Source: Leptotrichia trevisanii DSM 22070 (GTDB lineage: Bacteria > Fusobacteriota > Fusobacteriia > Fusobacteriales > Leptotrichiaceae). From it: a DNA stretch of 64,000 nt. The position numbers were made by a program, and so were the translations under genes. The notes under the pieces are model-generated. The model saw only the letters and a list, made by a program, of their open reading frames with translations, had not been told where the DNA came from and ran no database searches. The stretch is taken from NCBI RefSeq assembly GCF_000482505.1, contig NZ_AXVL01000006.1, positions 30,641-94,640 on the forward strand, written 5' to 3'. Below, piece by piece: positions 17,695 to 19,581 of this stretch (within the stretch, counting starts at the first letter, position 1; every line of letters starts with the position of its first letter).

Positions 17695-18936
17695 TTACTC
17701 TCCTTCAGCGTTCAATCTTACAATCTCCACAATCACATCAGTTGCCAGAATCATACTCTCAAGTGCTACAAATTCGTATTTCCCATGAAAATTTTCCCCA
17801 CCTGCAAAAATATTTGGTGTAGGAAGTCCCATGAATGAGATTTTTGAGCCGTCTGTTCCACCACGGATTGGCTTGATTATTGGTTTTATTTTAACGTTTT
17901 CCATTGCTTTTTTGGCTATTTCTACGATTTCCATGTGATCTTTTATAATTTCACCCATATTGTAGTATTGATCTTTTATTTCAATTGTTACTAATTCTTT
18001 TTTGTATTTTTCATTAATTTTTTTGGCAACATTTTCAGCAAATTTCTTTTTTTCTTCAAACTTCTGTCTGTCGTGATCTCTCAAAATGTATGATATTTCA
18101 GCATCTTCACAATTTGCATTGATTTTTTCAAGAAAATAAAATCCTTCGTAGCCTTCTGTCTTTTCAGGCACTTCATCTGCTGGAAAACTGTTTATAATTT
18201 CTGCCGCTATTAAGCTTGCATTTATCATTTTTCCTTTGGCTGTTCCTGGATGAACGCTTTTACCTTTTATTTTAAATACAGCTCCAGCTGCATTAAAACT
18301 CTCATATTCAAGCTCTCCGACAGGTCCTCCATCCATTGTATAAGCAAAATCCGCTCCAAATTCCTCAACATTAAAGTTATCTGCTCCACGCCCAATTTCC
18401 TCATCAGGCCCAAATGCTATTTTTACTGTCCCATGCTTAATTTCAGGATGATTAATCAAATATTTCATAGCCTCAATAATTTCCACAACTCCAGCCTTGT
18501 CATCGGCTCCCAGAAGTGTTGTTCCATCAGTAGTAATTACAGTTTTCCCAACATAATCTTTTAAATTAGGAAATTCATCCACAGAAAGCACAATATTTTG
18601 CTCCCTATTCAAAATAATATCTTTCCCGTCATAGTCTTCCACAATCTGTGGATTTACATTAACTGCATTAAAATCAGCAGTATCCATATGTGCAATAAAT
18701 CCAACAGTTTTCACATCTTTATCAACATTACTTTTCAAAGTTGCATTAACAAAGCAATTTTCATTCACATATACATCTTCCAGTCCAATGTCTTCCAGCT
18801 CTTTTACAAGCATTTTAGCAAATTCAAGTTGTGTCGGTGTCGATGGGATACTCTCACTTTTTTCATCCGATCTAGTTTCAATCTTTACATATTTCAAAAA
18901 TCTCTCTTTAAGTGTTTCATATTTGTTCAAATCCAT
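17695..18936 (-). CDS. pepT: Peptidase T (tripeptide aminopeptidase)
   Basis: PepT is a cytoplasmic dizinc M20B aminopeptidase that releases the N-terminal residue from tripeptides. Metal and catalytic motifs in order are VGFIAHMDTAD, TTDGTTLLGADDKAGVVEI, FGPDEEIGRGADNF, YTMDGGPVGELEYESFNAA and the C-terminal IRGGTDGSKISFMGLPTPNIFAGGENFHG. The length of 413 aa is normal (E. coli 408). It heads an operon with two TPR genes and has a good promoter upstream. It fits with the oligopeptide importer at 36.9-43.2 kb in a peptide-fermenting lifestyle, which is inference. Confidence 0.95.
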   Translation of the reverse strand: MDLNKYETLKERFLKYVKIETRSDEKSESIPSTPTQLEFAKMLVKELEDIGLEDVYVNENCFVNATLKSNVDKDVKTVGFIAHMDTADFNAVNVNPQIVEDYDGKDIILNREQNIVLSVDEFPNLKDYVGKTVITTDGTTLLGADDKAGVVEIIEAMKYLINHPEIKHGTVKIAFGPDEEIGRGADNFNVEEFGADFAYTMDGGPVGELEYESFNAAGAVFKIKGKSVHPGTAKGKMINASLIAAEIINSFPADEVPEKTEGYEGFYFLEKINANCEDAEISYILRDHDRQKFEEKKKFAENVAKKINEKYKKELVTIEIKDQYYNMGEIIKDHMEIVEIAKKAMENVKIKPIIKPIRGGTDGSKISFMGLPTPNIFAGGENFHGKYEFVALESMILATDVIVEIVRLNAEGE

Positions 18937-18986: not shown

Positions 18987-19015
18987 ATTTTACAATTTTT
19001 TACAGTTTTTTTCAA
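18987..19015 (-). promoter_or_regulatory. Promoter of pepT
   Basis: TTGAAA, a 17-nt spacer and TAAAAT on the minus strand, about 50 nt upstream of pepT. It is back-to-back with the plus-strand promoter at 19045-19073. Confidence 0.65.
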
Positions 19016-19044: not shown

Positions 19045-19073
19045 TTGATTTTTTTAATATTTATATGTATAAT
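19045..19073 (+). promoter_or_regulatory. Promoter of the 25-aa peptide gene
   Basis: TTGATT, a 17-nt spacer and a perfect TATAAT on the plus strand. A start site near 19080 would give a leader of about 25 nt carrying AGGAGG. Confidence 0.7.
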
Positions 19074-19105
19074 ATTAACAAAATAAATATTAGGAGGTAA
19101 CAAAT

Positions 19106-19183
19106 TTGAAAAATATTAAACAATGGGCTAAATTATCACTAACTTTTGGTATTATTTCACTAATTTCATTAATTTTACAATAA
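19106..19183 (+). CDS. Putative 25-residue hydrophobic/amphipathic peptide
   Basis: This is a tiny ORF with a complete transcription unit: promoter 19045-19073, a perfect AGGAGG ribosome site 8 nt before a TTG start, and a hairpin terminator right after the stop. The product begins MKNIKQWAKLSLTF and ends GIISLISLILQ: a short basic N-terminus with one tryptophan followed by a hydrophobic, serine-spaced helix. The look is that of a membrane-inserting small protein such as a type I toxin, a modulin-like peptide or a transporter regulator, but no family is recognised. No antisense RNA or partner gene was identified. It is flanked by pepT (divergent) and a convergent DUF2628-like gene. Confidence 0.6.
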   Translation: MKNIKQWAKLSLTFGIISLISLILQ

Positions 19184-19189
19184 ATAAAA

Positions 19190-19236
19190 AACTCAAGTAA
19201 TCATAAGTTAATACAATTTCTTGAGTCATATTTTTA
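19190..19236. terminator. Bidirectional terminator after the 25-aa peptide gene
   Basis: ACTCAAG and CTTGAGT arms are separated by 22 nt. The plus tail is CATATTTTTATT and the minus tail is TTTTTTATTT, so it serves both the peptide gene and the convergent gene ending at 19252. Confidence 0.75.
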
Positions 19237-19251
19237 TTCTTTGTAATAATA

Positions 19252-19581
19252 TTATTCGTTACTGCTAGTCATAATTACACCATTTGAAATCAATAGCTGT
19301 TTATCAGTTTCGCTTGCTGGTTCCCATCCTTTTTCAATTAGAGTTTTTGCATACATTCGATTGTATTTTAATCCAATAAGAACACGATATCCGATTGTTG
19401 CAAGTCCAAAAGTAAATCTACCAATAATTCCCGCTAAAAAGCCAATTATCAAAAACATAATCGCCTCCTCCTTATCACCTCTAAATAAAGGCACAAACCA
19501 TCCAAAAAAAAATGTCGTCCATGAGAATCCTAATTTTACTTCTTTTCTCAAGCCATTATTTTCTACAATCGCTACTGCCAT
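19252..19581 (-). CDS. Small membrane protein, DUF2628-like
   Basis: This 109-aa protein contains GFSWTTFFFGWFVPLFRGDKEEAIMFLIIGFLAGIIGRFTFGLATIGY, with two hydrophobic segments. The phrase GFSW-x-FFFG followed by a basic loop and a transmembrane helix is the pattern of DUF2628-type membrane proteins. C-terminal RMYAKTLIEKGWEPASETD is also typical: the family often ends with a soluble LL-x-KGW-xP element. The function is unknown for the family. The start ATG at 19581 has TGGAGGAT 7 nt upstream, and a strong promoter is about 35 nt further up. It is a single-gene unit with a bidirectional terminator. Confidence 0.75.
   Translation of the reverse strand: MAVAIVENNGLRKEVKLGFSWTTFFFGWFVPLFRGDKEEAIMFLIIGFLAGIIGRFTFGLATIGYRVLIGLKYNRMYAKTLIEKGWEPASETDKQLLISNGVIMTSSNE

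What the first reader, a model, noticed from the sequence alone, without database searches (positions are those of the whole stretch)
19045..19236. A complete transcription unit for a 25-residue membrane-like peptide
Near-consensus promoter (TTGATT-17-TATAAT), perfect AGGAGG, TTG start, 25 codons and a hairpin terminator sit in 190 nt. The peptide has a basic Trp-containing head and a hydrophobic serine-spaced helix. Such units are missed by standard gene callers; it could be a small toxin, a modulin-like peptide or a regulator of a membrane protein.
Basis: partly seen in the sequence, partly recalled or inferred. Interest (0 to 1): 0.7.

Follow-up and report, generated by a model that had tools for sequence, protein, structure and literature searches.

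The report
Orphan 25-codon ORF in one Leptotrichia
A tiny possible gene with a good-looking start signal sits between two ordinary genes of an oral bacterium, but its closest relatives lack the start signal, so it is either a very young or an abandoned gene rather than a conserved toxin or regulator.

Summary
The hairpin is the terminator of the convergent 109-aa gene: it is far more stable on that strand, its U-run follows the stem directly there, and it is conserved in 4 of 4 genomes. The three closest relatives with this locus lack a 41-nt block, bounded here by the 8-bp repeat AATATTAA, that carries the Shine-Dalgarno sequence, the start codon and codon 2. In two of them the rest of the frame is recognisable, ends one codon early and differs only at non-synonymous codons. 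An intact unit exists in 1 of 13 genus genomes. Shine-Dalgarno-led small ORFs exceed chance in this genome, and the other four in about 430 kb all have family matches or conserved copies. So translation is plausible, but conserved function is not supported. Best reading: a lineage-specific orphan ORF, newly born or the last intact copy. The controls exposed a better lead outside the window: a multicopy 20-aa hydrophobic peptide with a tandem small RNA, resembling a type I toxin-antitoxin.

The parts
19045..19073 (+). promoter-like TTGATT-17-TATAAT
   Evidence: 10/12. TATAAT is kept in 4 of 4 aligned genomes; the -35 hexamer is not (CTAATT in G004/G009, TTTAAT in G003).
19071..19111 (+). 41-nt block (equivalently 19079-19119) between 8-bp direct repeats AATATTAA (19071-19078, 19112-19119); holds SD, start codon and codon 2; absent from G004, G009 and G003
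   Evidence: alignment; no second copy within 3 mismatches of the SD-start part in the own genome
19092..19097 (+). Shine-Dalgarno AGGAGG, 8 nt before the start
   Evidence: this genome only among the aligned relatives
19106..19183 (+). 25-codon ORF, TTG start, TAA stop
   Evidence: intact in 1 of 13 genus genomes
19191..19226 (-). intrinsic terminator of the convergent 109-aa gene (weakly bidirectional)
   Evidence: -15.7 to -16.8 kcal/mol on the minus strand, -8.1 to -10.6 on the plus strand in 4 of 4 genomes; 1-2 differences in 81 nt against G004/G009
19252..19581 (-). convergent 109-aa protein gene, no Pfam or NCBIfam match
   Evidence: present beside pepT in 4 of 13 genus genomes
17695..18936 (-). 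pepT, peptidase T; its own promoter TTGAAA-17-TAAAAT at 19015-18987 (-)
   Evidence: the promoter sequence is kept in relatives

Best explanation
This is a lineage-specific orphan small ORF in the pepT / 109-aa gene spacer. A promoter-like site that was already partly there sits just upstream of a 41-nt block, found only in this genome, which supplies a strong Shine-Dalgarno and a TTG start. These are joined in frame to an older T-rich stretch that encodes a membrane-like string largely by composition. If the RNA is made (inferred), ribosomes would start at 19106 and produce a 25-residue membrane-inserting peptide at some level (inferred). It has no conserved function: it is best seen as an incidental or very young (proto-gene) product. 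Reading through towards the opposite gene would be limited only weakly by the bidirectional hairpin. Shown: sequence elements, absence of SD/start in relatives, non-synonymous divergence, terminator orientation. Inferred: transcription, translation, membrane insertion, direction of the indel.
For: SD, start and codon 2 lie in a block absent from 3 of 3 relatives that share the locus. The frame in G004/G009 has no SD and no ATG/GTG start (only an internal TTG, 7 codons from the end, in G004). 0 synonymous against 5-6 non-synonymous codon differences, with 76% of possible changes being non-synonymous. The ORF stretch differs at 8 of 69 nt from G004 and from G009, while pepT differs by 6.3 and 5.7% and the hairpin stretch by 1-2 of 81. 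Peptide search of 33 family genomes: only G000 plus the two start-less relatives. The same kind of search finds two other exact-SD peptides of 26 and 20 aa in 6 and 8 of 13 genus genomes, so it has the power to see conserved ones. Absence in all three relatives, including G003, makes one gain more parsimonious than two or more losses.
Against: Deletion between 8-bp direct repeats is a common event and could have removed the block from relatives more than once, so the direction is not proved. Four of four other exact-SD small ORFs in the genome sample look real, which raises the odds that this one is a working gene. Only one genome of this species is available, so no test within the species was possible. 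With 8 differences in 69 nt the selection test is weak, and it says nothing on constraint within G000's own lineage.
Confidence: 0.5

Rival explanations
1. Ancestral small membrane-peptide gene whose start was deleted in relatives by slippage between the AATATTAA repeats; this genome keeps the last intact copy, and the codon changes in G004/G009 are decay after inactivation.
For: The repeats fit a simple slippage deletion. SD-led ORFs rarely arise by chance. In the spacer G004 and G009 share several states against G000 and G003, so a single deletion could serve both (alignment read by eye).
Against: G003 lacks it too and shares CCAGCTAAAT with G004/G009, so TGG (Trp) looks derived in this genome. 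The other codons are mostly not alignable in G003. The ORF stretch has diverged no more slowly than its surroundings.
Confidence: 0.25
2. Chance assembly that is not expressed: AT-rich spacer with a promoter look-alike, a fortuitous AGGAGG and the convergent gene's terminator.
For: Promoter look-alikes are dense here (16 in 900 bp). The -35 is not conserved. The hydrophobicity is explained largely by composition. The first stage searched a whole window for such patterns.
Against: Exact SD + start + ORF + promoter is expected only 0.0025 times in this window's spacers and 0.017 times in the 457 kb sample.
Confidence: 0.18
3. A functional type I toxin, modulin-like peptide or regulator of a membrane protein.
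For: Length, basic head and hydrophobic segment fit the general look; strong SD.
Against: Single copy, no conservation, no antisense promoter above 9/12 over the ORF, no unusually stable leader/ORF fold (z 0.0), no family match.
Confidence: 0.07

Closest known systems
Intergenic smORFs of bacteria (Fesenko et al. 2024, PMC11188072; abstract and section list seen)
   Same: 15-70 codons, intergenic, hydrophobic and potentially transmembrane
   Different: Their families were chosen for purifying selection; this ORF shows none and has no conserved family.
TM-first proto-genes of yeast (Vakirlis et al. 2020, PMC7005711; abstract and section list seen)
   Same: T-rich non-genic DNA encoding a potential transmembrane segment, lineage-restricted start
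   Different: A bacterium; the start comes with an SD on a 41-nt indel; no expression or fitness data; gain against loss unresolved.
Type I toxin peptides (Ibs, TisB, Fst and similar; recalled, not compared by a tool)
   Same: Short hydrophobic peptide with strong SD
   Different: No antitoxin RNA candidate, no SD-hiding structure found, single copy, no relatives.

Membership tests
Type I toxin-antitoxin toxin | short hydrophobic peptide with a translation start | tested here: met
Type I toxin-antitoxin toxin | antitoxin RNA encoded opposite or nearby | tested here: not met
   only 9/12 minus-strand promoter look-alikes over the ORF; no Rfam RNA there. A weak promoter could be missed.
Type I toxin-antitoxin toxin | mRNA structure that hides the SD | tested here: not met
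   115-nt leader and ORF fold no better than shuffles, z 0.0
Type I toxin-antitoxin toxin | homologous family, often several copies | tested here: not met
Type I toxin-antitoxin toxin | growth arrest on expression | not testable with these tools
   experiment needed
Phenol-soluble-modulin-like peptide | amphipathic helix | tested here: inconclusive
   Kyte-Doolittle moments 0.15-0.69 over 18-residue windows; no threshold was set
Phenol-soluble-modulin-like peptide | secretion and surfactant activity | not testable with these tools
   experiment needed
De novo proto-gene | restricted to one lineage, with a matching stretch without a start in relatives | tested here: met
De novo proto-gene | absence is ancestral | tested here: inconclusive
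   G003 lacks it too, but repeat-mediated loss cannot be excluded
De novo proto-gene | transcribed and translated | not testable with these tools
   no expression data found

The most novel reading that the evidence does not exclude
A bacterial de novo gene caught at birth: one 41-nt insertion placed a Shine-Dalgarno and start codon behind an existing promoter-like site and turned a T-rich, already open frame into a translated membrane peptide in a single lineage, with the enabling event visible between 8-bp repeats.
Probability: 0.25. Interest if true: 0.5.

Novelty: new member of a known kind. Interest (0 to 1): 0.25.

Why it matters
Taken as a conserved toxin or regulator it would mislead. 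As an orphan ORF it is a clean, testable case: intact and start-less alleles differ by one 41-nt block, so gain or loss of translation can be tied to one event. The controls also show that exact-SD small ORFs in this genome are mostly real, and they brought up a stronger small-peptide/small-RNA candidate.

Tried and rejected
Donor for the 41-nt block: no other copy within 3 mismatches of the SD-start part in the own genome, none for the start-Trp codons, nothing in viral contigs (exact) or plasmids (blastn); inside the window only 11-13-nt exact or 16-nt one-mismatch AT-rich matches among the hits printed. Rejected as a truncated copy of a longer gene: no relative of the peptide elsewhere in the own genome and no family match. 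Phage copies by tblastn: none. Papers on Leptotrichia small proteins or start-site maps: the 10 rows listed hold 0 occurrences of Leptotrichia (713 papers held two of the three terms, so the rest were not seen).

Full report
Observation. The elements are at the stated coordinates: TTGATT-17-TATAAT at 19045-19073, AGGAGG at 19092-19097, TTG at 19106, 25 codons, TAA at 19181-19183, hairpin 19191-19226. The spacer lies between pepT (17695-18936, minus strand; NCBIfam peptidase T) and a convergent 109-aa gene without a family match (19252-19581, minus strand).

Chance. With a first-order Markov model of this window's spacers (29 blocks, 7026 nt), exact AGGAGG + start + ORF of 15-80 codons is expected 0.024 times, and 0.0025 times with a promoter of 10/12 or better within 90 nt. 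In 21 stretches totalling 457 kb (window included; about 24 kb counted twice) there were 5 such ORFs against 0.25 expected. The other four are ribosomal L36, a 40-aa start of a Pfam AAA-ATPase_like protein, a 26-aa peptide present in 6 of 13 genus genomes and a 20-aa peptide present in 8 of 13. So this kind of signal is usually real in this genome, and the conservation search can detect peptides of this size.

Conservation. A DNA search of 13 genus genomes gave long matches over the spacer in G009 and G004 and partial ones in G003. The alignment shows one 41-nt block, bounded in this genome by two copies of AATATTAA (19071-19078 and 19112-19119), that is missing from G004 and G009. G003 lacks it as well, and its following sequence is mostly not alignable. 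The block holds the SD, the start codon and codon 2. The -10 hexamer is kept in 4 of 4; the -35 is not (CTAATT in G004 and G009, TTTAAT in G003). In G004 and G009 the remaining frame is recognisable (51 codons stop to stop, no SD, no ATG or GTG; one internal TTG in G004). Against this genome it has 5 and 6 non-synonymous and 0 synonymous codon differences, including Gln to stop. The stretch differs at 8 of 69 nt, against 6.3 and 5.7% in pepT and 1-2 of 81 in the hairpin stretch. The peptide search of 33 family genomes finds only this genome and the two start-less relatives.

Polarity. Presence in one genome only is most simply a gain. But the flanking direct repeats make deletion easy, and the flanking genes give mixed groupings: informative sites in pepT are 12 for G000+G009, 8 for G004+G009 and 6 for G000+G004; the other gene segments favour G000+G009; the spacer groups G004+G009 by eye. 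This suggests recombination. I leave gain against loss open, favouring gain about 2 to 1.

Terminator. On the minus strand the stem is followed directly by TTTTTTATTT and folds at -16.6 kcal/mol (z -4.9). On the plus strand it is -7.7 (z -2.2), with CATA between stem and T-run. The preference holds in 4 of 4 genomes. It is the convergent gene's terminator and may stop plus-strand RNA weakly.

Peptide. GRAVY 0.86; best 15-residue window 2.42. 4.7% (ORF composition) and 8.9% (spacer composition) of 20,000 random peptides each reach that peak; 16% and 26% reach 1.9. Hydrophobicity is therefore not evidence of function. The leader and ORF fold no better than shuffles (z 0.0); no antisense promoter exceeds 9/12 over the ORF; single copy.

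Conclusion. Real sequence signals, not a conserved gene. I rate translation in this strain as about even or slightly better, conserved function as unlikely, and a toxin or modulin role as poorly supported.

Side find (outside the window). The 20-aa control peptide MVDFIAIFILFVIICYSLNR (L066:15241) has 11 copies in 8 of 98 phylum genomes examined, all 8 within the 13 of this genus, with 3 copies in G011. Of 11 loci, the script located the peptide in 10 (it missed L100). In 9 of those 10, a strong promoter (TTGACA-16-TATAAT in 8; a TTGACT variant in L092) lies upstream on the same strand, 85-89 nt before the end of a terminator, which is followed at once by the peptide's own TGTTATAAT; L097 has the terminator and the -10 but no such promoter. 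The mRNA folds with its SD paired (z -3.5; in the consensus of 4 sequences the SD pairs with the region after the stop). The short RNA and the mRNA tail carry near-complementary CCCTAAGGG / CCCTTAGGG elements: exact complements of 8-12 nt in 5 of the 10 located loci, only 5-6 nt in 4, none in L097. Whole-RNA duplex energies beat composition shuffles in some of the 5 loci tested but not in L095. No Pfam, NCBIfam or Rfam match at gathering scores. It resembles a type I toxin-antitoxin with a tandem, same-strand RNA. Two paper searches gave 0 papers for Leptotrichia and 2 listed for Fusobacterium, neither about this by title; not a proof of absence from print.

Noticed in passing
L066:15241-15303 (+) = G000:C3:15241, outside the window; copies in L091-L101: 20-aa hydrophobic peptide with strong SD, multicopy in 8 of 13 genus genomes, SD hidden by a long mRNA hairpin, preceded on the same strand by an 85-89-nt RNA with a consensus promoter and terminator; loops CCCTAAGGG/CCCTTAGGG complementary over 8-12 nt in 5 of 10 located loci. 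Candidate new type I toxin-antitoxin.
   Followed up: partly
L075:10346-10426 (+), outside the window; L086-L090: 26-aa peptide MRVKETIKILLLILLEVLRYLIEKFL with SD and a following terminator-like hairpin, 96% identical in 5 other genus genomes, no family match; a recalled resemblance to DinQ/TisB-type peptides was not tested.
   Followed up: partly
window 29637 (+): 40-aa ORF with SD matching the first 30 positions of Pfam AAA-ATPase_like (PF09820): a truncated gene start.
   Followed up: no
window 19252-19581 (-): 109-aa protein without a family match, beside pepT in 4 of 13 genus genomes; more distant relatives (about 40-51% identity) at other places in 9 of the 13 genus genomes.
   Followed up: no
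window 18987-19015 (-): pepT promoter TTGAAA-17-TAAAAT kept across several Leptotrichia genomes whose further upstream DNA differs.
   Followed up: no
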